A stretch of 64,000 nucleotides of DNA from an uncultured Chlorobiaceae bacterium (GCA_903824295.1 CAIJWE010000030.1:1-64000); one strand, 5' to 3'. Counted from the first letter of the stretch, positions 542-13,500 are shown. The notes: generated by a model not told the origin, from the sequence alone. A program made the numbers and translations.

Positions 542-3532
542 TTAGGCGTCGGGCGTTGCGGAGCGCGCCAGCACATCATCCAGGGAGCGGGCCACAACAT
601 ACCTTGCAGGCGTCTCGCCAACACTGAGTGCCTTGAAGTGGGCCTTGCCGCACTCAATCTTTGCACTCTCTTTGTCACGCAGGTCATCGGTGAAGAGCCC
701 GCTCTTGGTCTCGACAACAAAGTATATCCGTTCTTCTCCGTCCGTTTCGACGAGTACCGCCCAGTCTGGATTATAGGTGTCGAGAGGAGTAGGAATCCTG
801 AACCATCCCGGCAACTTGGCATAGACCTTGATAGCCAGATTTTTCTCCAACTGGTCAGCAAAAGAGGCTTCAACGTCTGAGTCATAGACCACTTTTTCAT
901 AGACCGACTTTTCGACGGGGATCAGGTTCTTGAGGTAACCAGTAAGTTCTTGTTGCTCAAAAAGCTCCTGGGCGTAAAAATGTTCGTCACCAAGGCGGTG
1001 ATACTTGATGCCATCCACAACAGCCAGTTGCTTGCACCGTTTGATAGCTTCGGCAGCCAGCTCAATGAACTGTTGCGGGTTACGCTTGAAATCATCGAGT
1101 CGCCCGGAGGCCGTCAGAATACGATGAATCGTGCGGCGGGTCAGCCGTGTGCGATCCTGCAGATCCGTAAGCAGGTCAGGCAATTCAATATCGTTTTCAT
1201 CAAGCACAACCGTTGCTGCACCACTTCGTTCAGTAGCTTCAACGCCCGATTTGCCAATCACAATATCCGCCTTGTGCCACTGCATGCGTGTCTTCAAAAT
1301 TGCCGGAGCATTTTGTAATGCCTTGATGCAACTCTCCACAAGCTTTTCATTGTCGAACTCTACGCGGTAAGTTGTTTTATGCTTGATACGCTCCCAAAGC
1401 TCTTTGAACTCCGGACTGTGCAGCACTGCCTGCCGGGTGAGTACCTGTCTCCGCTCATCCGCATTCTTGATCTCCAAACGACCGGCAAGCTTTTTCAGCA
1501 CTGCGGTAATCTGATCAAGCAGTGGCTTGAATGGCTCCGGCACACGAAGAGTCCCCTCCTTGAGCACACGCTTCAGCGAATCCTGCACCTTGCCCTTGCT
1601 GTCAATATAGTTTTGCTCTTTCAGATACTCCCACAAGAGCTTCGACTGCTCGAATCCAAGAGGAATTGAGACTCCTTCGTCAGTAGTAACGGAAATCGCC
1701 GCAAACTGGTGTTCTTCGACAATCCCGAATCGAATACCGGTTTCAGCCTCAATCTCTCTCTGAAGATTTTCGGCAAACTGCTCATAACTCTCGGTTGCAA
1801 TAACCGTCAGCGTATTGACTTCAAATCCACGCAGTCGCAGGCCATGCTGATTGACGCATAACCGCAGACCACGCCCTATCGTCTGGCGGCGTTCACGCTC
1901 TGAGCCCATTTCACGCAGTGCACAAATCTGAAAGACATTGGGGTTATCCCACCCCTCCTTGAGAGCCGAATGGGAAAAGATGAATTTCAATGGAGTCTCC
2001 AGTGAGAGCAGCTTCTCTTTCTCCTTCATGATCAGGTTGTAGGCCCGTTCAGCGCTCTCCCGATTTCCCTGATTGTTCTCCTCTGTATTGGTCCAGCCAC
2101 CTTTTTTGTCGATTGAGAAATAGCCGTTATGCACCTCTTCGGGGGCATGCGTCAGGTCAACTTCACTGAACAGCGTGAGGTAATCAGGCAGCTTTGCCGC
2201 CCGGCGGTACTCCTCCTCGAAAATGCGGGCATAATCACCCTTCACGGAGTTACCGTCAGTGTCGTAAGAGCGATATTTGGCAACCTCATCAATAAAGAAG
2301 AGCGAAAGCACCTTGATGCCCTGCGGACGCAGACGCAGCTCTTTGTCGAGGTGTTCCTTAATAGTGCGGCGGATCATTTGGCGCTGAACGGCAAGAGCAT
2401 CCACATCTCCATACGCCTCGCCAGGTTTCAGGAACTGCTCACCACCGGGGAAGCGCAACTCCATAAACTCCCTGCCCTTTTCAACACGGATTTCACCGAT
2501 AGAGCAATCTGCATAGATCGCCCGGCTGGTAACCATTTCAAGATTATCGCCATCAACCACAACAGCCTCTTTTCGCCTGACACCGCTGGCCGTCAGCTTG
2601 TCGAGTTCAACAAGTGCGGAAATTCTGCCACGCTTGTTCTCGACCTTCAAGAGACGGAGATATGGCTTGTTGAAGGCATCTTCCACTGTAGCAGCAGCAA
2701 CTTCGATCTGCTTGACCAGCCCCTTATCGTGCGCATCAACCGCATCAAGACGATAAACCATCTGGTGCTTGTCCACATGCGTAGCGGAATAACGCAGGGT
2801 ACAAAGGGGGTTCATGGCATCAAGCGCAGTTTTGCCTGCACCGGAGAGACCACCATCCACACTTTGCGGTTCATCAATAATCAGAATGGGTCGCACCGCC
2901 TTGACAAGGTCAATTGGCTTTTCCCCGCCGGTCGGCTCATTGGCTCCCTTGCCGTAAATATTATTGACATCCTTTTTGTTGATGGCACCAACCGTCATCA
3001 CCATAATCTGTATTTGCGAGCTGGTAGCAAAATTACGCACCTGCCCCAGCTTTGCGGAGTCATAGAGGAAATATTCAAAAGGCACGCCAGCATAGAGCCC
3101 CTTGAAGTGCTCTTCGGTAATCTGAAGGGTTTTGTAAACCCCCTCCTTGATTGCCACTGACGGGACGACAATGACGAATTTGGTAAAACCGTACCGCTTG
3201 TTGAGTTCAAAGATGGTACGCAGATAGACGTAGGTTTTGCCCGTTCCGGTCTCCATCTCTACCGTAAAGTCACCGGAAGCAAGTATTCCGGAAGGCGGCA
3301 AACCATTGCGAAGCTGAATATCATGCAGGCTTTTGAGCAGGTCATCATCAAGCAACGTCAGCCGGTTGCCAATGCCAAGATCACTCTCCATGCCAGGAAA
3401 CTGCATATCTTTCGTCGTCGGCATGGTAACGGTAAACTCCGTGCGGCAGATCTCCTGCCCGCGAAAAAGGTCGCAGACCGCTTCAACCGCCTGTAGTTGA
3501 TAGTCAAGGTTCGGTTCAAAGTGCAGTTTCAC
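542..3532 (-). CDS. res: Type III restriction endonuclease Res subunit (DEAD/DEAH helicase + PD-(D/E)XK nuclease)
   Basis: 996 aa; Walker A METGTGKTYVYLRTIFEL, Walker B IIDEPQS, helicase motif TIGRGLRL, C-terminal NPDWAVLVETDGEERIYFVVETKSG nuclease motif. Confidence 0.93.
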   Translation of the reverse strand: MKLHFEPNLDYQLQAVEAVCDLFRGQEICRTEFTVTMPTTKDMQFPGMESDLGIGNRLTLLDDDLLKSLHDIQLRNGLPPSGILASGDFTVEMETGTGKTYVYLRTIFELNKRYGFTKFVIVVPSVAIKEGVYKTLQITEEHFKGLYAGVPFEYFLYDSAKLGQVRNFATSSQIQIMVMTVGAINKKDVNNIYGKGANEPTGGEKPIDLVKAVRPILIIDEPQSVDGGLSGAGKTALDAMNPLCTLRYSATHVDKHQMVYRLDAVDAHDKGLVKQIEVAAATVEDAFNKPYLRLLKVENKRGRISALVELDKLTASGVRRKEAVVVDGDNLEMVTSRAIYADCSIGEIRVEKGREFMELRFPGGEQFLKPGEAYGDVDALAVQRQMIRRTIKEHLDKELRLRPQGIKVLSLFFIDEVAKYRSYDTDGNSVKGDYARIFEEEYRRAAKLPDYLTLFSEVDLTHAPEEVHNGYFSIDKKGGWTNTEENNQGNRESAERAYNLIMKEKEKLLSLETPLKFIFSHSALKEGWDNPNVFQICALREMGSERERRQTIGRGLRLCVNQHGLRLRGFEVNTLTVIATESYEQFAENLQREIEAETGIRFGIVEEHQFAAISVTTDEGVSIPLGFEQSKLLWEYLKEQNYIDSKGKVQDSLKRVLKEGTLRVPEPFKPLLDQITAVLKKLAGRLEIKNADERRQVLTRQAVLHSPEFKELWERIKHKTTYRVEFDNEKLVESCIKALQNAPAILKTRMQWHKADIVIGKSGVEATERSGAATVVLDENDIELPDLLTDLQDRTRLTRRTIHRILTASGRLDDFKRNPQQFIELAAEAIKRCKQLAVVDGIKYHRLGDEHFYAQELFEQQELTGYLKNLIPVEKSVYEKVVYDSDVEASFADQLEKNLAIKVYAKLPGWFRIPTPLDTYNPDWAVLVETDGEERIYFVVETKSGLFTDDLRDKESAKIECGKAHFKALSVGETPARYVVARSLDDVLARSATPDA

Positions 3533-4578
3533 TCCTGTTCCTCCAGTGCGCGTGCGGCTTCAATTGCATCCCGTTCACGCTCGATCTCCAGACGAAGCTC
3601 TTCCTCTGTTGGCAGCACCAGACGGTAGCGGGTCGCAAACAGTTGTTCACTCTCATGCAGCACGGAGTAGCGCACAACGGATTGATCTTTGTGTTCACAC
3701 AGCAAAATACCGACAGTCGGGTTGTCGCCTTCGCCACGCTTGAGGTCGTCATACATGCGCACATACATGTCCATCTGCCCGATATCCTGATGCACAAGCT
3801 TGCCGGTCTTCAAGTCAATCAGCACAAAGCACTTGAGCAGGTAGTTGTAAAAAACAAGGTCGATATAAAAGTCCTGTGACTCGGTACTGATGCGCTGCTG
3901 ACGGGCAACAAAAGCGAAGCCCTTGCCCAGTTCGAGCAAAAAAGCTTGCAGCTTATCCATCAATGCCTGCTCCAGCTTTGACTCCAGCAATTTACCCGTG
4001 CCGGGCAGACCAAGGAACTCCAGCATCACGGGGTCACGCACAAACTCCCGGGGGCTACGAGGCAGAGCCGCGATATTGGCATCAGCCTCACTCTCTACAC
4101 TGGCCTTGTCGCTGCTGAGCAACAACCGTTCAAAGTAGAGTGTACCAATCTGACGATCCAGTGCGCGAACATTCCAGTTGTGCGTAGCGGACTCATTCAT
4201 GTACCACATTCGGGCTTCCTTGCTCGTGACTCGCAGCAGTGTCCGATAATGCGTCCAGCTTAATTCGTGACGCAGCGCGTCACACATTGGAAAAGCCTTA
4301 TAAAAGAGTCGCATATAACGCAGATTGGAGGCATCAAATCCCTTGCCAAACTCACGGGTCAACGATTCCGCCAGTCGCGGCAAGAGCTTTTTGCCATAAG
4401 CAGCACGTGCCTCGCCACCCTGCTCAAACTCAACGATATGGCGGCCAATCTCCCAGCAGGTTTGCACCTGCACCCTGTCCACGGCACGGAGTGCATGCTG
4501 TCGTCCTTGTTGAATGAGTTCCCGCAAGGCATTCAGCAATCCTGTTAATGGAGGAGTTGTCGGTATCAGATTTGCCAT
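3529..4578 (-). CDS. DUF1016 / YhcG-family PD-(D/E)XK nuclease domain protein
   Basis: 349 aa; N-terminal ...VQTCWEIGRHIVEFEQGG..., C-terminal DFYIDLVFYNYLLKCFVLIDLKTGKLVHQDIGQMDMYV typical of DUF1016. Overlaps res by 4 bp. Confidence 0.9.
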   Translation of the reverse strand: MANLIPTTPPLTGLLNALRELIQQGRQHALRAVDRVQVQTCWEIGRHIVEFEQGGEARAAYGKKLLPRLAESLTREFGKGFDASNLRYMRLFYKAFPMCDALRHELSWTHYRTLLRVTSKEARMWYMNESATHNWNVRALDRQIGTLYFERLLLSSDKASVESEADANIAALPRSPREFVRDPVMLEFLGLPGTGKLLESKLEQALMDKLQAFLLELGKGFAFVARQQRISTESQDFYIDLVFYNYLLKCFVLIDLKTGKLVHQDIGQMDMYVRMYDDLKRGEGDNPTVGILLCEHKDQSVVRYSVLHESEQLFATRYRLVLPTEEELRLEIERERDAIEAARALEEQE

Positions 4579-4580
4579 GG

Positions 4581-6556
4581 CTACAAGCTCCTGATGATTT
4601 CGAGCCCATGCTGCTGAAGAATGGCGGCAAGGTTTGTTTTTGCAACATCGTCAGCAAAGGCACTGTCGCGGAAAACAGAGGTTGTTTCTCCTGCCGGTGC
4701 AAGCTCCTTGTGCCATGCAACAATGCCTTGGGCGAGAGGCTCAACCTCATCACGGGTGATATGAGTAGCAAGGCAGACAAGCAACACACCACCGCCGACG
4801 GAGTGAACCTCTTTACCTGCAAACGTCCGTTTCTCGATAGGAACACAGAGGTCAAGGCCAAGTTTGAGGAGCAGCTCATAGAGAATATCCGCTTCACCGC
4901 GATCAGCCTTCAGATGTTCAACGGAGTTAAAGAGTGTTGTTTCGAGATCGTTGCGATCCGGTTCCCAGGTATTGATGTTGCTTGAATCAAGCTTGAAGAC
5001 GCGGAATCCAAGGTCACCGGGGAAAAGAGGATTTTCATCCTTGATTTTCCGAGCCGCACGGCGGAGGCGCTCTTTGGTGAGTTCAGCGATGTTTCGAGGC
5101 TTGGAAATTTTATCACAAAAAGTTGCAGAGTTTTTCTGCTCCTTATTCTCTGGATCAAGTGGTTCGGGTAATTGAACAAGAATATAACGTCGGGTACCTT
5201 CATCGGATTGATTTTGTTCAAGAACAGCATGCCCTGCTGTTCCAGAACCCGCAAAAAAATCAAGTATCAGATCTGAATCGCTTGTAACGGTTTGAAAAAG
5301 TTGCGCAAGAAGATAAGGTGATTTAGGAGATTGAAAAAGTTTGGCCTTCGTGCCGAAAAGAGCATTAAATACTTTTTGGCCACGTTCTGTGTAATAGGAT
5401 TTGTCGAGTAAGATTGTTTTAAGCATCCGATCTGCACCGTTGGCGTAACTCTTTCGATAAATTTTCCAACGGCCATATACCTCTTTCGCAAATAAAAAGT
5501 CACCATCTTTCTTGGCTTTGTTACTATCCCACGTCCAGCAGCCTTCAAACCCGTCATCCCATAAAGGAGTTACCTTGTGAAAACCCTCCTCTTTTTCGAG
5601 AAATACCTCACCGTCATCGTTCACATAAAAAGGATAAAATAGATTTTTTCGATTATGCTTCCCAAATTCCCGATGTGTATTGCGCAGCTCTAAAAGACGA
5701 TATTTACCTCCATCGTCTTCTTCGGGATACTCAGCTTCGATTTGATCATCTTCTTTTGCAATAGCAAAAGCCCCTTTTGGTAATGGTCTCTTACTATAAA
5801 TCAAAATATATTCGTGGTTTGTAGCAAAATATTTGTCCTGTGACCGACCTTTCGGATTGCATAACAGTGTTATTGTTGAAATAAAGCATTCTTCACCAAA
5901 AATATCGTTACATATTATTCGAAGATTTTGAAGCTCTTTTTCATCAATCTGATAAAAATCACCCCTTCATCCCGCAGCAAATTCCTCGCCAGCGTCAGCC
6001 TTGGATACATCATGTTGAGCCAGTCGGTATGAAAGCGCCCACTGGCTTCAGTGTTGCTGCTGATCTTGCGGCCACCCTCAACCTGGCCGGTGAGTTCGAG
6101 GTAGTTTTTGATGTTGTCCTGGAAGTTGTCGGGGTAGACAAAGTCCTTGCCGGTGTTGTATGGTGGATCAATGTAGATGAGCTTCACCTTGCCGGAGTAG
6201 CTCTTCTGCAACAGCTTGAGCACTTCAAGGTTATCCCCCTCAATCATCAGATTTTTTGTGGTGTCCCAATCCACACTCTCCTCCGGGCAGGGGCGCAGGG
6301 TACCGGTGGATGGGGTAAGGGCAAGCTGCCGGGCTTTACGTTTGCCGTGCCAGTTGAGGCCGTACTTCTCTTCCTGTTCTTCCACCGAGCCACCGAGCAG
6401 TTGGCGGAGCACCTCAAAATCAATCTTGCCTTCCGTAAACGCTTCAGGGAAGAGCGTTTTCAACTGCTCAATATTGCCTGCCAGAATATCGGCGGATTGG
6501 GCTTCAGGGTCATTTGCGGTTAACGGCTTGATGGTCGCCTCTTCGTATTCGGTCAT
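4581..6556 (-). pseudogene. mod: Type III R-M DNA adenine methyltransferase (Mod), interrupted by an apparent 1-nt frameshift near 5954-5958
   Basis: ORF 5915..6556 carries DPPYNTGKDF (motif IV); ORF 4581..5804 carries LDFFAGSGTAGHAVL (motif I). Adding one base in the run at 5954-5958 yields ...GVIFYQIDEKELQNLRIICNDIFGEECFISTITLLCNPKGRSQDKYFATNHEYILIYSKRP..., a continuous Mod protein. Confidence 0.88.
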
Positions 6557-7311
6557 AATTTTTGTTTTGTTGTTGCCAGTTCTGCTTCAATCCGCTTGAG
6601 TTCCAGGTTCAGCTCCACCTGCCGGGGTATCTGCCTCTCTTTTGCCGCAAGAGTGCGCAGACGGACGATTTCCTCATGCAACACTCCACACTCCCGCAAG
6701 GCATCACATCGGGTTGCGGCATACTCTGCGCTATCTGCAAGAGCGAAACTCCCCGTCACCATTGCTGCATGCAGCGCCAACACTGAGTCAAGCCAACCCT
6801 GATAGAGATCACGGAGGTTTGTGCGTGGTTGACGGCCAAGCGGCAGTGAGTTATGGAAATCGACCAGAATGAGTGAATCAACCTCGTTTTTCCATTCGAC
6901 GGAAACAATATCGCCCTCAAGCACCGTTTTGCCAGCCTCACTCTGCGACCACCGCTTGTGGACAACAGAGAGCGATAACTGTGCACCCTGCCGGGTCAAA
7001 AGCAGAACAGGATAAGGAATCGCCCGATGCACCAGTTCCACCAGCCGCTTTATTTTGGCTCCGTCACGCAAGGTAAGCAGCAAAACGGCAATTTCCAGAT
7101 ATTCATGGCTTTCGTCCCGGAACTCAGGAACCCCGACAGTTACCGGCTTGAGTGCCGCAATCCAGATCAGCTCTTCAATCCCCTCGTTGATAGAGCGTTT
7201 GTCGGCAGCAGTGGGTGCACCGTTTTCAAGCAGCAGCTTCCTGGGTACCCGCTGGTTCACCAGGCTGCTATCCGGCAGGTCAAATGCTGCGATCAGCGCT
7301 TGACTCTTCAT
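6553..7311 (-). CDS. DUF4391 domain-containing protein
   Basis: 252 aa; MKSQALIAAFDLPDSSLVNQRVPRKLLLENGAPTAADKRSINEGIEELIWIAALKPVTVGVP... resembles DUF4391. ATGA overlaps with mod and the helicase gene. Confidence 0.8.
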   Translation of the reverse strand: MKSQALIAAFDLPDSSLVNQRVPRKLLLENGAPTAADKRSINEGIEELIWIAALKPVTVGVPEFRDESHEYLEIAVLLLTLRDGAKIKRLVELVHRAIPYPVLLLTRQGAQLSLSVVHKRWSQSEAGKTVLEGDIVSVEWKNEVDSLILVDFHNSLPLGRQPRTNLRDLYQGWLDSVLALHAAMVTGSFALADSAEYAATRCDALRECGVLHEEIVRLRTLAAKERQIPRQVELNLELKRIEAELATTKQKL

Positions 7312-10300
7312 ACGGTTGCCTCCGGCAGAATAACAAGGTATGCCATCACCTCAAAATCGTTGATGCCGGCAAATTCTCCCTTCATGGCGTGCGTACCGCC
7401 GGGAGTGAAAAGGCTTGCAACAGCTCGTTCCTGATTCTTTCCAGCTACGGAGGCTACGGCTGCGGCAAGCAGGCGTTGTGCTGCAAGCATCTCTTCCCCC
7501 TGTTTTGTCGCCTTGTCGAATCGGGCACACGCACCGGCATCGGCCATATCACGACCGAGGCAGAGACGCTTGAGCCGGTCAAGAATCTGCTTCGCTTGTG
7601 TGTAGGGCAGAATCACCGATCCATCGTCACCAACATGGACGAGGTAATGAGTGCCAAGGGGATACCCGGCGTCAGGAATTCGCCGGGCCGCTTCACCCTC
7701 CGCACGCAAACAGAAAATAATGCCCGGTGCAATATCCGCCTCTGCTGTGGTGGTAACGGCAAAGCTTCCCGGCGGCAGCGTCTCCAATACTTCGGGATTG
7801 GCTTTCAGATATTGGGCAAGGTCAAGGCGAATGTCAGTCAGGGTGAGGTCAGCGATGGAGACACCGGAGGAGAGATCCTCCAGATCGATCACGGTTTCCT
7901 GAAGCTTGAGCAGTTGCTTGCGGCGATACTCCAGATCGTTCATCTGATTGCCGGATTGCTGCTCAATAAGGTTCTCCTCACCCGTAGCGGAGATGTCGAG
8001 AAGCACCATTTTGCCGCTTACCCGCTGTTCAAGATTGATATACTCCTCAAGCTCCATATTTGGCCAGAAGTTGACAAGCTGAATGCATCGGTTTGGCGAT
8101 CCGATACGGTCAATCCTGCCAAAGCGCTGGATGATGCGCACCGGGTTCCAGTGAATATCGTAGTTGATGAGCCAGTCACAGTCCTGAAGGTTTTGCCCTT
8201 CGGAGATGCAGTCCGTTGCAATAAGCAGGTCGATATTTCCTTCGTTGGAAAGTTCTTCGGGACGCTCCTTGGAACGGGGTGCAAATGCACTGAGAAGAGT
8301 GGACTGATCCTTGCGCAATCCGGATAAGGTTGTCTGATTACTTCCGGAACCGGCAATAAGAGCGCTCTCAAGGTGAAGCTCAGACTTCGCCCACGGAGCG
8401 AGCTGATCGTAAAGGTATCGGGCTGTATCAGTAAATGCTGTAAAAACGATAACCTTGCTGTTACCGGGATTGATGGGGTTCCGGTATTTGGTGGCAATAA
8501 CGTCACGCAGGGCTGCCAGTTTGGCATCTCGCTGTGCATCAACCTGGGCCGCCGCTGCGTATAGAGTTGCCAGCCTGTTGCGATCTTCAATGAGCTCCTG
8601 CTTCCATTTGATCAGATCTACATCCTGAAGCAAGACCTTGACTTTACGACCAACAAGCAGGCTTTCAAAAGCGGGATCGTCAAGGTCAACATCGGCAATA
8701 TCAATCTCCTCAAGCTCGGTCGTTTTTGACTCAATACGTGCCAGCATTGCTTCAACATCGCGGAGTTGGCGTTGAACGGTGAGCGCAAATGATGAAACGG
8801 CACTCTCCATCCGTTTGAGCATGTTGATACGAAGCAGGTGGATCAGACTCTCTTCACGGTCAGCCTGCCGGAAAAAGCCTTCGCCTCCCCGTACACGTGT
8901 ACTGTACTTACGATCGTATGCTTCCTGCTTGTGCGGCAGTACATATCGCAAAGGAGCATAAGAGGCAAGGTTCAGACGGCGAATCTCCTGATTAATCTCC
9001 CTGATGGGCCGAAACTCACCAGCCCGGTCAACGTCAGCCTGGATGTTGATTGGTTTCAGGCGGTCAGGGAAGCGTCCTGTTTCGGAGATTCCATAATATT
9101 TTTCAACATGCTTGCGGGAACGTGCGATAGTCAGAAGATCCAGCAAGGTAAAGTAATCGAAGCCAAGCATTTCAATCAGACGAACCGGGATGCGCTCCGC
9201 CTCATCAAGATCCAGCCAGCGATTGAACTGCTTTTGTGCAAGCCGGGTGGTGCTGTCGATACTGCTGATGCCGTGGGCGAGCAAAGCCGAGTCGTTGCCT
9301 TCAGTGGCAAATGCAATCTGGTTGCGCAGATCAGCCAGCCTGTTGTTGACCGGCGTTGCCGAAAGCATGAGCACCCGGGTCTTGACCCCCTCTTTGATAA
9401 TCTTGCGCATCAGATGATCGTAGCGGGTTTCCTTTCCTTTGTTGGCTGCCTTGTTTCGGAAGTTGTGCGATTCATCGATAACGACAAGATCGTAGTTTCC
9501 CCAATTGACGTGCGAAAGATCAATATCGCCGGAGAACCCGCCGTCACGGGAAAGATCGGTGTGGTTCAGGACATCATAGTTGAAGCGGTCGGGAGCAAGA
9601 AAATTCCGACGATCATTGGCTTTATAGAGCGTCCAGTTGTCACGCAACCTCTTCGGGCAAAGGACCAGCACCCGGTCGTTTCGTAGTTCGTGATATTTGA
9701 TGATGGCAAGAGCCTCAAAGGTCTTGCCCAGCCCGACACTGTCGGCAATAATGCAGCCGCCAAAGCGGTTGAGCTTGTCAAGCGCACCAATCACACCATC
9801 ACGCTGAAAGCGGTAAAGCTTCTTCCAGACCACGGTGTTGCGAATACCTGTAGCAGACTTGACGATACGCTCTTCATCAAGATCTTCGTCACGGTCGCGG
9901 AAGATGTTATACAGGATGAGCGAGTAGACGAGGTAAGGCTCTCTGTGAGAGGCGAGTGATTGTAACAGACCAATCAACTCTGTTTTGGCCTTTGGATTCT
10001 CTGCAAGGCCCGACCACTGAGCATCAAACCACTTGCTGAGCAATAACGCCTCTTCAGGCGTTTCAGAAGCCTGAATCAAATTCAAGGGGTTACCAGGTGT
10101 CAATCCAAGACCATCAGTAGTGAATGCCAGCGAACCAAGAAGCACCTGCTCGGGCACTGCATCGCCATCACGAACAACAAAAGCGCCTTGCGGCACTGCA
10201 CCGGGAGCAAGCTTCACTTCGCTTTTGCTTTGAAGCCATTGCTGCAGGCGACTTGCAATCCAACGGTTTTGCAAACGGTTACGAGCAGCACGATCGGCTT

Positions 10301-10502
10301 CAGACCCAAGAATTGAAAGTTCTGTAGTGACTGGTGGCAAAAGAAGACGGCATGTTAAAAGTGCCGCCATTTCTTGAAGCATACCGAAAAAGGCGAACAG
10401 CGAAAAAGAGGGGGTTACCATATCAAACTGGCAACCTGCGGTGAGTTTTGATCGAAGGTAGTCGATGACTCGGTCTGTTCCACTGTTTTGAACAAGCTTC
10501 AT
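7308..10502 (-). CDS. SNF2/DEAD-family helicase with N-terminal PLD-like domain
   Basis: 1064 aa; IIADSVGLGKTFEALAIIKYHE, VVIDESHNFRN, LMLSATPVNN, RFGRIDRIGS helicase motifs; PLD-like N-terminal region. Confidence 0.9.
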   Translation of the reverse strand: MKLVQNSGTDRVIDYLRSKLTAGCQFDMVTPSFSLFAFFGMLQEMAALLTCRLLLPPVTTELSILGSEADRAARNRLQNRWIASRLQQWLQSKSEVKLAPGAVPQGAFVVRDGDAVPEQVLLGSLAFTTDGLGLTPGNPLNLIQASETPEEALLLSKWFDAQWSGLAENPKAKTELIGLLQSLASHREPYLVYSLILYNIFRDRDEDLDEERIVKSATGIRNTVVWKKLYRFQRDGVIGALDKLNRFGGCIIADSVGLGKTFEALAIIKYHELRNDRVLVLCPKRLRDNWTLYKANDRRNFLAPDRFNYDVLNHTDLSRDGGFSGDIDLSHVNWGNYDLVVIDESHNFRNKAANKGKETRYDHLMRKIIKEGVKTRVLMLSATPVNNRLADLRNQIAFATEGNDSALLAHGISSIDSTTRLAQKQFNRWLDLDEAERIPVRLIEMLGFDYFTLLDLLTIARSRKHVEKYYGISETGRFPDRLKPINIQADVDRAGEFRPIREINQEIRRLNLASYAPLRYVLPHKQEAYDRKYSTRVRGGEGFFRQADREESLIHLLRINMLKRMESAVSSFALTVQRQLRDVEAMLARIESKTTELEEIDIADVDLDDPAFESLLVGRKVKVLLQDVDLIKWKQELIEDRNRLATLYAAAAQVDAQRDAKLAALRDVIATKYRNPINPGNSKVIVFTAFTDTARYLYDQLAPWAKSELHLESALIAGSGSNQTTLSGLRKDQSTLLSAFAPRSKERPEELSNEGNIDLLIATDCISEGQNLQDCDWLINYDIHWNPVRIIQRFGRIDRIGSPNRCIQLVNFWPNMELEEYINLEQRVSGKMVLLDISATGEENLIEQQSGNQMNDLEYRRKQLLKLQETVIDLEDLSSGVSIADLTLTDIRLDLAQYLKANPEVLETLPPGSFAVTTTAEADIAPGIIFCLRAEGEAARRIPDAGYPLGTHYLVHVGDDGSVILPYTQAKQILDRLKRLCLGRDMADAGACARFDKATKQGEEMLAAQRLLAAAVASVAGKNQERAVASLFTPGGTHAMKGEFAGINDFEVMAYLVILPEATV

Positions 10503-10905
10503 AGGCGGTGACTTCCGGTTTGAATCGTAACCAATCGGTTTATAATGGAAAAGAAGAACTTAACTTCATTGGGAATGACGAGATTACACTCTGTACTCTT
10601 ATTTATCATTTATTCACATCAAACGAAAGAAATAACGTAGGTTACAGGCAAAATTATTGCCGGTTTTATGTGGAATAAAGCACAGATAAAAGAACAAATG
10701 CTGTCCGGAGGATAACAAATGCTGATTTCTTTCATAAAAGGTTTTTTATACACCATTTTTCCCCCTCATGCCATCATCCAGCAACGATTTTACTATCTCA
10801 AAAAAAAACTTCGTTTGAAGAGCTATGCTTCATCTCATCGAAGCGGGTAACTTTACCATGCCAGCATGTTATCCCCTTTTACATTCAAACCGAGCCTTGA
10901 TGCCG

Positions 10906-11586
10906 TCACTCAACCTGCTCAATACAGTTGCTGCCCTGATAGCGGGCATTGTTTACCTGTGTTGATACCGGATACATGTCCAAAATGCCGTTATCAGCGG
11001 GAACCAGCATCGTTGCAAGTGTTCTGGGATCAGCTTCAAGCCATGTTTTCCAGTTTTCGGGTTCGAGAATTACTGGCATTCGGTCATGGAGAGTTGCGAT
11101 CTGCTCATTTGCCGCAGTGGTGATGATGGTGCAGGTCGTGATTGCGGGTTCTTCGGTATTCTTTGGCTTCCAGGTGTCCCACAGTCCGGCAAATGCCATG
11201 GGCAAGCCATCCGCCCGGTGGATGTACCAGGGTTGCTTCTTTTTGCCTTCGGTGCGTTCCCACTCATAAAAGCCGCTTGCCGGAATCAGGCAGTGGTTCC
11301 GCCCAACCAGATGCCGGTAATAGGGTTTCGTGACCAAAGATTCAGCCCGTGCGTTTATTGGCCTGATTTTGGGAAGTTCCTTGGCCCAACGGGGAATCAA
11401 CCCCCATCGTGCCGAGGTGATGTTATAGGGCTCATGGCTGGCCTGCAGGATGATAATATCCGTTTCCGGAGGGATGTTGTACCGATTTGTCTTGGGGTAA
11501 TCCTGATACTCTTCAAACGGCAACTCCAGTTGGCGCAGGAGGTCAAGGAAGTACTTCAATTCGTAAAACCCGAATCGTCCGCACAT
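10906..11586 (-). CDS. SOS response-associated peptidase (SRAP; YedK/HMCES family)
   Basis: MCGRFGFYEL start with catalytic Cys2; SARWGLIPRWAKELPKIRPINARAESL..., CLIPASGFYEW motifs. Confidence 0.95.
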   Translation of the reverse strand: MCGRFGFYELKYFLDLLRQLELPFEEYQDYPKTNRYNIPPETDIIILQASHEPYNITSARWGLIPRWAKELPKIRPINARAESLVTKPYYRHLVGRNHCLIPASGFYEWERTEGKKKQPWYIHRADGLPMAFAGLWDTWKPKNTEEPAITTCTIITTAANEQIATLHDRMPVILEPENWKTWLEADPRTLATMLVPADNGILDMYPVSTQVNNARYQGSNCIEQVE

Positions 11587-11737
11587 ATTTTCGCCTTATT
11601 TTTCCGTTGACAAATATTCCTGTTCATCACACTCTCTGTACAAGAATATAGCACTACGATGACGTATATGGAGTGGTGGCCGCTTTTTTACCAACTCCCC
11701 ATCTCCTCTTCAAAATGTATATTCCGGTAATGAAAAC

Positions 11738-12202
11738 ATGCGAACGACGATGCGACTCTCCAAAATACATGCCGGCCCGGTGCTGGACTTCTTCACTCCT
11801 GACTTTACAATGCAGCTTGAACTGCCGCTTGCCGGCACGGCTATTGCTGCGGGTTTCCCTTCTCCGGCTGAAGAGTATCTGGATCTGGCCCTTGACCTGA
11901 ACAAAGAGTTGATCAAGCACCCGGCAGCCACCTTTTATGCGAGGGTGAAAGGTGGCTCGATGGTTGATGCGGGCATTCAGGATGGTGACTTGCTGGTTAT
12001 CGACAAGGCCCTTGAGCCAAGAGAGGGCGCCATTGCGGTTTGCTATCTTGACGGGGAGTTTACGGTGAAGCGACTGGCTGTGCGGGAAGAGGGCGTCTAC
12101 CTGATGCCGGCCAATGATGAATTCAGGCCGATCAGAATCACTGAAGAAAATGACTTTCTGGTGTGGGGCATCGTTGCTTATGTAATTCACAAACCGGGAT
12201 AA
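11738..12202 (+). CDS. umuD: UmuD-like S24 peptidase (translesion polymerase accessory)
   Basis: AGFPSPAEEYLDLALDLNKELIKHPAATFYARVKGGSMVDAGIQDGDLLVIDKALEP...; directly upstream of umuC. Confidence 0.93.
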   Translation: MRTTMRLSKIHAGPVLDFFTPDFTMQLELPLAGTAIAAGFPSPAEEYLDLALDLNKELIKHPAATFYARVKGGSMVDAGIQDGDLLVIDKALEPREGAIAVCYLDGEFTVKRLAVREEGVYLMPANDEFRPIRITEENDFLVWGIVAYVIHKPG

Positions 12203-12225
12203 CCCCCCTGCTGGAGATAGACCCC

Positions 12226-13500
12226 ATGTTTGCCCTTGTTGACTGCAATAACTTCTATGCTTCGTGTGAACGGGTGTTCAACCCCTATCTGCGATTGCGC
12301 CCGGTTGTTGTGTTGTCGAACAACGATGGCTGCATTATTGCCCGCTCTGAAGAGGCCAAGGCGCTTGGCATTCAGATGGGAACGCCGGAATTCAAGTGCC
12401 GCCCATTGATCAGGCAGCATGATGTGGCGGTCTTCTCCTCAAACTTTGCCCTCTATGGCGATATGTCGTCACGGGTGATGATGACGCTTGCCGCTCTTGC
12501 GCCTGAAATTGAAGTCTACTCCATTGATGAGGCTTTTCTGGATATGTCTGGCTTTGCGCGCTTTGACCTGACGGAGTACGGCAGACTGATTCGCAAGACA
12601 GTCCGGCAGCATACCGGCATTCCGGTCTGTGTGGGCATGGCGCCAACAAAAACGCTTGCGAAAATTGCCAACCGGCTGGCAAAAAAGAACCCGCACTATC
12701 AGGGTGTCTGCGTGCTCGAAACCCGTGCCGAGATCCAGGCCGCGCTTGAGCGAACGAAGGTTGAGGATATCTGGGGCATCGGGAGGCAGTGGAGCAAGGT
12801 GTTGCAGGCAAAGCGGATTGAGAGCGCCGCTGACCTGGCGGATTCTCCTGCTGCATGGGTACGCAAGCACCTGCACATCGTCGGCGCAAGAATTCAGGCT
12901 GAGCTGCAGGGCAAATCCTGCCTGCCGATGGAGCTGGTTCGGCCTGCAAAGCAAAGCATCTGCACTTCACGATCATTTGGTCGCAGCGTTACCAACCTGG
13001 AGGAGTTGCAGCAGGCCGTGGCGACGTTTGCGGGCAAGTGCGCGGTGAAGCTGCGAAAAGAGAACACTCTGGCTTCGCTGATTACCGTTTTTATCGCGAC
13101 CAGCCCGTTCGATGATTCATGCGAGCGATACTGGGGCACCAGGACGGCTTCCCTGCCCTGCCCTACAAATAACTCCATTGCCATTCTGCAGTCAGCGCAA
13201 ACAATGCTTGACGGCATCTTTCGTGCCGGGAAGAGCTACAAAAAGGCTGGTGTTCTGGTAAGCGGTATCGTGCCGCAAGCACCATGCAGCACCACGCTTT
13301 CGCTTTTTGCTGAAGAAGCGCCTGTACACAATGAGCGGGATCAGAAGATCATGCAGGTGATGGACACCATCAACAATCGCTATGGCAGTGGTGCCGTGCG
13401 GCTGGCGGCGGAGAACTCTGAGAGCTGGAAACCGCATCAGCAGCGGCTTTCTGCACGATATACGACACAGTGGGATGATATTATTGAGGTGAAGGTGTGA
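12226..13500 (+). CDS. umuC: DNA polymerase V catalytic subunit (Y-family)
   Basis: MFALVDCNNFYASCERVFNPYLRLRPVVVLSNNDGCIIARSEEAKALG...; ORF track opens earlier at 12163 but ATG 12226 fits the family start. Confidence 0.95.
   Translation: MFALVDCNNFYASCERVFNPYLRLRPVVVLSNNDGCIIARSEEAKALGIQMGTPEFKCRPLIRQHDVAVFSSNFALYGDMSSRVMMTLAALAPEIEVYSIDEAFLDMSGFARFDLTEYGRLIRKTVRQHTGIPVCVGMAPTKTLAKIANRLAKKNPHYQGVCVLETRAEIQAALERTKVEDIWGIGRQWSKVLQAKRIESAADLADSPAAWVRKHLHIVGARIQAELQGKSCLPMELVRPAKQSICTSRSFGRSVTNLEELQQAVATFAGKCAVKLRKENTLASLITVFIATSPFDDSCERYWGTRTASLPCPTNNSIAILQSAQTMLDGIFRAGKSYKKAGVLVSGIVPQAPCSTTLSLFAEEAPVHNERDQKIMQVMDTINNRYGSGAVRLAAENSESWKPHQQRLSARYTTQWDDIIEVKV

What the first reader, a model, noticed from the sequence alone, without database searches (positions are those of the whole stretch)
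542..10502. Compact composite defense operon: PLD/SNF2 helicase - DUF4391 - type III Mod - DUF1016 nuclease - type III Res
Seen: five consecutive minus-strand genes. Three junctions overlap by 4 bp (7311/7308, 6556/6553, 3532/3529) and one is separated by 2 bp, implying one translationally coupled unit. Known: Mod/Res is a type III R-M pair, DUF1016 carries a PD-(D/E)XK nuclease fold, and helicases with PLD-like domains occur in multigene anti-phage systems. Inference: the helicase and DUF4391 are functional partners of the type III R-M core, not bystanders, making an extended R-M system distinct from canonical two-gene type III. I cannot tell from sequence alone whether this arrangement has already been named.
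Basis: partly seen in the sequence, partly recalled or inferred. Interest (0 to 1): 0.75.

Follow-up and report, generated by a model that had tools for sequence, protein, structure and literature searches.

The report
Extended type III restriction operon
This is a bacterial DNA-cutting defence operon (a type III restriction system) that carries two extra, widely conserved partner genes, a motor protein and a small probable adaptor, although the copy in this genome has a broken methyltransferase gene.

Summary
The operon is real. The main inference holds. Helicase-DUF4391-Mod-Res is a conserved four-gene order, seen in Chlorobiota and relatives, Nitrospirota, Tectomicrobia, Pseudomonadota (including E. 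coli plasmids and CFT073), Thermodesulfobacteriota and an archaeon. DUF1016 is not core: elsewhere its place is empty or holds RhuM, Fic, GmrSD or Schlafen-type genes. The helicase-DUF4391 pair behaves as a removable unit: in at least two lineages it was deleted while Mod-DUF1016-Res stayed intact. The same helicase family also precedes Eco57I-type methyltransferases whose N-terminus contains a DUF4391-like domain. There the helicase keeps its PLD nuclease motif; in all 32 type III-linked helicases it is lost. Best reading: a nuclease-dead SNF2 motor, tied by the DUF4391 adaptor to the methyltransferase, assists a type III enzyme. Murray et al. 2021 reported a different (DrmD-like) helicase beside type III genes, without DUF4391. 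Verdict: new variant of a known kind; function untested.

The parts
7308..10502 (-). SNF2-family helicase with degenerate N-terminal PLD-like domain (1064 aa; PADLOC C3a139 'HKD+Snf2')
   Evidence: intact Walker A (ADSVGLGKT 253-261) and DESH; PLD HxK motif absent; dN/dS 0.07 against L022
6553..7311 (-). DUF4391 protein (252 aa), probable helicase-methyltransferase adaptor
   Evidence: PF14335 E 2e-73; tight junction with helicase conserved across phyla; confident model without PDB match
5915..6556 (-). type III Mod, N-terminal piece (213 aa, motif IV DPPY), ends at the frameshift stop
5948..5949 (-). site of the one-base loss that breaks Mod (AG|ATT; relatives AGCATT or AGTATT)
4581..5951 (-). 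type III Mod, remainder in the shifted frame (TRD region and FAGSGT motif), no further stop; the ORF list gives 4581-5804 from its first TTG
3529..4578 (-). DUF1016/YhcG PD-(D/E)XK nuclease (349 aa), passenger between Mod and Res
   Evidence: PF17761, PF06250, PADLOC PDC-S02; absent from type III loci outside Chlorobiaceae in this sample
542..3532 (-). type III Res: SF2 ATPase with C-terminal endonuclease domain (996 aa)
   Evidence: PADLOC REase_III 1327 bits; PF04851, PF19778; EcoP15I Res 4zcf_C E 1e-67

Best explanation
The locus is a type III R-M operon with a conserved two-gene accessory module placed 5' of mod. Shown by sequence: Mod and Res are EcoP15I-like; Mod is frameshifted in this genome; the helicase is an SNF2-family motor whose PLD nuclease motif is missing in the type III-linked family; DUF4391 is encoded tightly after the helicase and has a relative fused to the N-terminus of Eco57I-type methyltransferases that follow the same helicase family. 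Inferred: Mod2Res recognises an asymmetric site, methylates one strand and cuts unmethylated DNA after ATP-driven sliding, as EcoP15I does. DUF4391 docks the SNF2 motor onto Mod, and the motor moves along dsDNA to help in vivo restriction (clearing bound proteins or phage inhibitors, or bringing distant sites together), while Res supplies the nuclease. DUF1016 is an exchangeable backup nuclease. In this genome the frameshift should leave Res without its recognition subunit, so the system is probably off, or the frameshift is an assembly error.
For: Four-gene order in Bacteria and Archaea. Helicase-DUF4391 junction between an 11-bp overlap and an 11-bp gap in 18 of 19 loci, while DUF4391-Mod varies from -4 to 1075 bp. 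Pairwise divergences correlate: helicase-DUF4391 r 0.95, helicase-Res 0.93, helicase-Mod 0.86, 0 of 2000 permutations as high. DUF4391 relative inside Eco57I MTases after the same helicase: hhalign E 2e-7, probability 94%; 5 of 7 hit PF14335. PLD HxK..GS motif in all 7 helicases beside Eco57I MTases with a complete N-terminus, in 0 of 32 type III-linked ones. Purifying selection on helicase, Mod, DUF1016 and Res, dN/dS 0.05-0.07; DUF4391 0.25-0.30. Helicase and DUF4391 deleted together at least twice with Mod and Res open. An unrelated type III-linked helicase was dispensable for methylation and for cleavage by a partly purified enzyme (PMC8259958).
Against: No protein-protein contact has been shown; the helicase model failed (pLDDT 34.5) and DUF4391 has no fold match. 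Some lineages keep Mod-DUF1016-Res without the module, so its contribution is conditional. dS is lower in helicase/DUF4391 (0.11-0.23) than in Mod/DUF1016/Res (0.33-0.43) between close relatives, so the two blocks can recombine apart. The correlation of distances is partly what any co-inherited operon would show.
Confidence: 0.6

Rival explanations
1. Helicase+DUF4391 form an independent defence system that only travels with type III genes (side-by-side island), with no shared mechanism.
For: The pair is lost as a block with Mod-DUF1016-Res intact; dS differs between the two blocks; the same helicase family sits beside an unrelated methyltransferase.
Against: No full-length DUF4391 was found away from a type III Mod in the 18 sample loci where the contig allows a look, nor in 14 plasmid loci; divergences of all four genes correlate; the order is the same across phyla; the type III-linked helicase lacks its own nuclease motif.
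Confidence: 0.2
2. The module regulates or protects rather than restricts: the SNF2 motor strips stalled Mod-Res from host DNA (for example at replication forks), limiting self-damage.
For: SNF2 proteins commonly remodel protein-DNA complexes (general knowledge); the nuclease motif is absent; the best PDB relative by sequence is RapA, a remodeller.
Against: Lineages that lost the pair keep Mod-DUF1016-Res under purifying selection, so it is not needed to tolerate the nuclease.
Confidence: 0.2
3. In this genome the locus is a decaying remnant: the Mod frameshift has switched the system off and the other genes are on their way out. (This concerns this copy and can be true together with the best explanation.)
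For: Single-base loss in Mod, only copy in the genome; other Chlorobiaceae copies are degraded (L021/L084 helicase remnant, stop in DUF4391, damaged Res in L021).
Against: Everything else is intact with low dN/dS, so the lesion is recent or an assembly error; intact copies exist in relatives (L022, L078).
Confidence: 0.45

Closest known systems
Classical type III R-M (EcoP15I, EcoP1I)
   Same: Mod with DPPY before FxGxGT and a variable middle region; Res with SF2 motor and C-terminal endonuclease; sequence match to 4zcf
   Different: Two extra conserved genes 5' of mod, DUF1016 between mod and res, and Mod broken in this genome
Helicase-bearing m4C type III systems Eco86II and BspHIV (Murray et al. 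2021, PMC8259958)
   Same: An extra SF2 helicase gene 5' of mod and res, common in many genomes
   Different: The Eco86II helicase (963 aa, DrmD-like) shares only the SF2 core (~29%) and forms a separate clade; no DUF4391 there; its Mod is 1040 aa. BspHIV has ~140 bp of non-coding DNA between helicase and mod (paper)
Helicase (C3a139) + Eco57I-type MTase operons (L079-L081, L091-L093, L096, L099, L101)
   Same: Same helicase family, sometimes with DUF1016; DUF4391-like domain at the MTase N-terminus
   Different: No type III Mod/Res; helicase keeps the PLD motif
DISARM (DrmD) and BREX-related helicases
   Same: SNF2 helicase beside a DNA methyltransferase
   Different: Helicase far below the DrmD cut-off; none of the five genes is DrmA, DrmB, PglZ or BrxC

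Membership tests
Type III R-M | Mod: DPPY motif IV followed by FxGxGT motif I with TRD between | tested here: met
   DPPYNTG in the N piece, FAGSGTAGH in the C piece, flanking a variable middle; EcoP15I Mod match for the intact relative
Type III R-M | Intact mod gene in this genome | tested here: not met
   One-base frameshift at 5948/5949, no second copy found
Type III R-M | Res with SF2 ATPase and C-terminal PD-(D/E)XK | tested here: met
   ResIII, DEAD, RE_endonuc; METGTGKT and PDW..VETK seen
Type III R-M | One-strand methylation of an asymmetric site; ATP-dependent cleavage about 25 bp away | not testable with these tools
   needs methylome and biochemistry
Eco86II-like helicase type III group | Same helicase family directly 5' of mod | tested here: not met
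   only SF2-core similarity, separate clade, DUF4391 in between
DISARM | DrmD above model cut-off | tested here: not met
   NF038317 154 bits against cut-off 610
DISARM | DrmA and DrmB genes in the operon | tested here: not met
   none of the five genes matches them as best family
PLD anti-phage helicase (NF042964) | above model cut-off | tested here: not met
   119.7 bits against 1100
PLD (HKD) nuclease | HxK...GSS motif | tested here: not met
   absent in the window and all 32 type III-linked helicases
DUF1016/YhcG (PDC-S02) | DUF1016_N plus YhcG_C nuclease domain | tested here: met
   E 1e-43 and 3e-56, PDC-S02 477 bits

The most novel reading that the evidence does not exclude
Helicase+DUF4391 is a portable motor-adaptor module of restriction systems: DUF4391 is the stand-alone form of a methyltransferase domain that couples an SNF2 motor to modification enzymes. 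The module has been plugged into two unrelated chemistries, as a nuclease-bearing motor with Eco57I-type methyltransferases and as a nuclease-dead motor with type III Mod-Res.
Probability: 0.45. Interest if true: 0.65.

Novelty: new variant of a known kind. Interest (0 to 1): 0.5.

Why it matters
Type III enzymes are taught as two-gene systems. A four-gene form that crosses phyla and reaches archaea, on plasmids and chromosomes, suggests that a share of annotated type III systems work with a second motor that in vitro studies of Mod-Res have not included. The DUF4391 link to Eco57I methyltransferases gives a first testable role to a domain of unknown function.

Tried and rejected
Programmed frameshift in Mod: rejected, because relatives read straight through with one more base and there is no repeat tract or standard slippery heptamer. 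DISARM or BREX membership: rejected on cut-offs and missing partners. Identity with the Murray 2021 helicase: rejected after locating the Eco86II operon in E. coli NCTC86. Helicase structure from a shallow alignment failed. Fold matches for DUF4391: none significant in PDB or viral models. DUF4391 in phage records: none. Upstream HTH gene as in several plasmid loci: no convincing small ORF in 10503-10905. A weak DUF4391 hit in ~1300-aa ORFs first looked like a helicase-DUF4391 fusion; it proved to be the N-terminus of an Eco57I methyltransferase. Literature: only one paper in the held open-licence library mentions DUF4391, once, in a paper on another subject; subscription papers were not searchable.

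Full report
WHAT IS THERE. Pfam and PADLOC confirm an SNF2 helicase (best PADLOC model C3a139 'HKD+Snf2', 369 bits), DUF4391 (E 2e-73), a type III methyltransferase, a DUF1016/YhcG nuclease (PDC-S02) and a type III Res (1327 bits). The genome has 2.85 Mb in 131 contigs and its closest named relatives at this locus are Chlorobiaceae metagenome assemblies.

Mod is not one gene. The first frame (5915-6556, 213 aa, with DPPYNTG) loses the Mod reading at 5948/5949 and stops at 5915; the rest, with FAGSGTAGH, is open in another frame down to 4581 without a further stop. In L013 and L019-L023 the site reads ATCAGCATT or ATCAGTATT; the window reads ATCAGATT. L024 and L025 differ in codons but keep the frame. 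The lesion is not in a repeat tract, so it is not a classical phase-variation switch. The genome search found no second copy. The last 170 codons of Mod still show dN/dS 0.07 against L022, so the lesion is recent or an assembly error.

THE CONSERVED CORE. Every full-length DUF4391 examined sits in the order helicase-DUF4391-Mod(-Res), apart from contig ends. In a sample of 395 genomes of the phylum, 20 full-length DUF4391 matches were found. 18 have a full-length helicase next door and two a remnant; Mod follows in all 18 whose contig continues. Outside: Nitrospira (L024), Tectomicrobia (L025), two IMG/VR contigs with the complete set (L088, L089), and 29 plasmid records with DUF4391. Of the plasmid loci, 14 were opened: Paraburkholderia, Acetobacter, Desulforapulum, Methanomethylovorans (an archaeon), Acinetobacter, Vibrio, Aeromonas, Shewanella, Providencia, Persicobacter, two E. 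coli, Methylotuvimicrobium and Neotabrizicola. All 14 have helicase and Mod; 11 have full-length Res, and in the other three Res is split (next to an IS element), truncated or beyond the record end. Chromosomal E. coli examples include CFT073 at leuX and NCTC11023. The helicase-DUF4391 junction lies between an 11-bp overlap and an 11-bp gap in 18 of 19 loci, most often a 4-bp overlap, whereas the DUF4391-Mod spacing runs from -4 to 1075 bp. Pairwise divergences of the four proteins correlate over 23-24 loci (helicase-DUF4391 r 0.95, helicase-Res 0.93, helicase-Mod 0.86; 0 of 2000 permutations as high).

WHAT IS NOT CORE. In type III loci of this sample DUF1016 occurs between Mod and Res only in Chlorobiaceae. 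Other loci have nothing there, or RhuM (L025), Fic plus an unnamed gene (L073), GmrSD (L030), Schlafen-AlbA_2 (L071, L067) or an ATPase-like gene (L060). Other insertions lie before Mod, such as a 1135-aa RNase H/AAA protein (L024) and ORF6N (L071). DUF1016 is best seen as a replaceable passenger. Conversely, many type III Res of this kind in the sample have no helicase/DUF4391: 65 genomes have Res at E<=1e-60, 26 the helicase.

NATURAL DELETIONS. In L078 the helicase start is fused to the DUF4391 end by one deletion; Mod, DUF1016 and Res are open. In L102, L103 and L104 only the last 31 residues of DUF4391 remain, immediately before an intact Mod-DUF1016-Res; Mod and Res have dN/dS 0.07-0.08 against the window (measured for L102 and L103; in L104 the contig starts just upstream). 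In L021/L084 the helicase is reduced to 65 aa, DUF4391 has a stop, and Res is damaged where it is covered (L021). So the pair tends to go together, and Mod-DUF1016-Res can outlive it. Between close relatives dS is 0.11-0.23 for helicase and DUF4391 but 0.33-0.43 for Mod, DUF1016 and Res, which suggests the two blocks are also exchanged separately; this is inference from two pairs of genomes.

THE HELICASE FAMILY AND DUF4391. Helicases of the same family without a DUF4391 gene lie mostly before a large Eco57I-type methyltransferase, sometimes with DUF1016 between (L079-L081, L091-L093, L096, L099, L101). Exceptions are L094, L095 and L097, where none of the modelled methyltransferases was seen; L098 and L100 end at the contig edge. 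The N-terminal region of these methyltransferases matches PF14335 in 5 of 7 members, and profile-profile comparison gives probability 94%, E 2e-7 over 104 columns. DUF4391 is thus the stand-alone relative of a methyltransferase domain found next to this helicase. The PLD motif HxK...GSS is present in all seven such helicases with a complete N-terminus that were compared and in none of 32 type III-linked helicases. The simplest reading is that the helicase supplies the nuclease where no Res exists, and is a pure motor where Res does the cutting. The AlphaFold model of DUF4391 is confident (pLDDT 87.5, pTM 0.83: a small alpha/beta core followed by long helices), but no solved or viral structure matches it.

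HOW IT PROBABLY WORKS. Established for the family: Mod2Res reads an asymmetric site, methylates one strand and cuts about 25 bp away after ATP-driven sliding (PMC8259958 and references there). Inferred: DUF4391 bridges Mod and the SNF2 motor, which helps restriction in the cell. What it helps with (clearing proteins or inhibitors, pairing sites, handling modified DNA) cannot be told from sequence. In this genome the Mod frameshift should leave Res idle.

COMPARISON WITH WHAT IS KNOWN. Murray et al. 2021 (PMC8259958) reported an extra SF2 helicase 5' of mod in Eco86II and BspHIV and in more than 500 genomes. It was not needed for methylation and was not detected in a partly purified enzyme that cut DNA. 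I located the Eco86II operon in the NCTC86 record (L087 11031-20448): its 963-aa helicase is DrmD-like (663 bits), shares only the SF2 core with the window's helicase, and no DUF4391 gene is present. Similar DrmD-like type III loci also occur in this phylum (L108-L110). So at least two helicase families have joined type III systems; the form studied here adds DUF4391. DISARM, BREX and BREX-related systems (PMC12839542) share an SNF2 helicase with a methyltransferase but not the defining partners. No paper naming the helicase-DUF4391-Mod-Res arrangement was found in the open-licence library; closed literature and REBASE could not be searched.

LIMITS. Calls of function rest on homology and neighbourhood. 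Sampling outside the home phylum is by plasmids and a few contigs, so frequencies there are not estimates. The tree is a quick one, with the Eco57I-linked clade and the two type III-linked clades unresolved relative to each other.

Noticed in passing
window 10906-13500: SRAP peptidase (minus strand) followed by UmuD-like S24 peptidase and UmuC (plus strand) flank the operon; the same neighbours flank it in L022 (1250-3804), suggesting a shared chromosomal site.
   Followed up: partly
L019 1719-4499: A 926-aa protein that looks like trypsin-like protease plus NTPase plus pentapeptide repeats lies near the helicase in a close relative; possible separate defence gene.
   Followed up: no
L024 9656-12726: Res of the Nitrospira locus is split between two frames (291 and 773 aa).
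   Followed up: no
L087 11031-20448: Location of the Eco86II operon (DrmD-like helicase, 1040-aa Mod, Res) in E. coli NCTC86 near fimB.
   Followed up: yes
L057 9096-10001; L058 9172-9336: Upstream regulators differ: a WYL/HTH protein in CFT073, a 55-aa HTH annotated MAD1 in NCTC11023, small HTH or hypothetical ORFs in several plasmids; none found in the window.
   Followed up: partly
L094 1-4044: A Res fragment directly upstream of a helicase of this family on a short contig (unusual order); G157:C110 also has Res on the far side of the helicase.
   Followed up: no
L067 5867-6047: Mod of a second Chlorobium locus (G224:C6) is also interrupted by a stop near its N-terminus.
   Followed up: no
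window 4581-5951: The middle of Mod differs from relatives while both ends are about 94-95% identical to L022, as expected for swapped target-recognition domains.
   Followed up: partly
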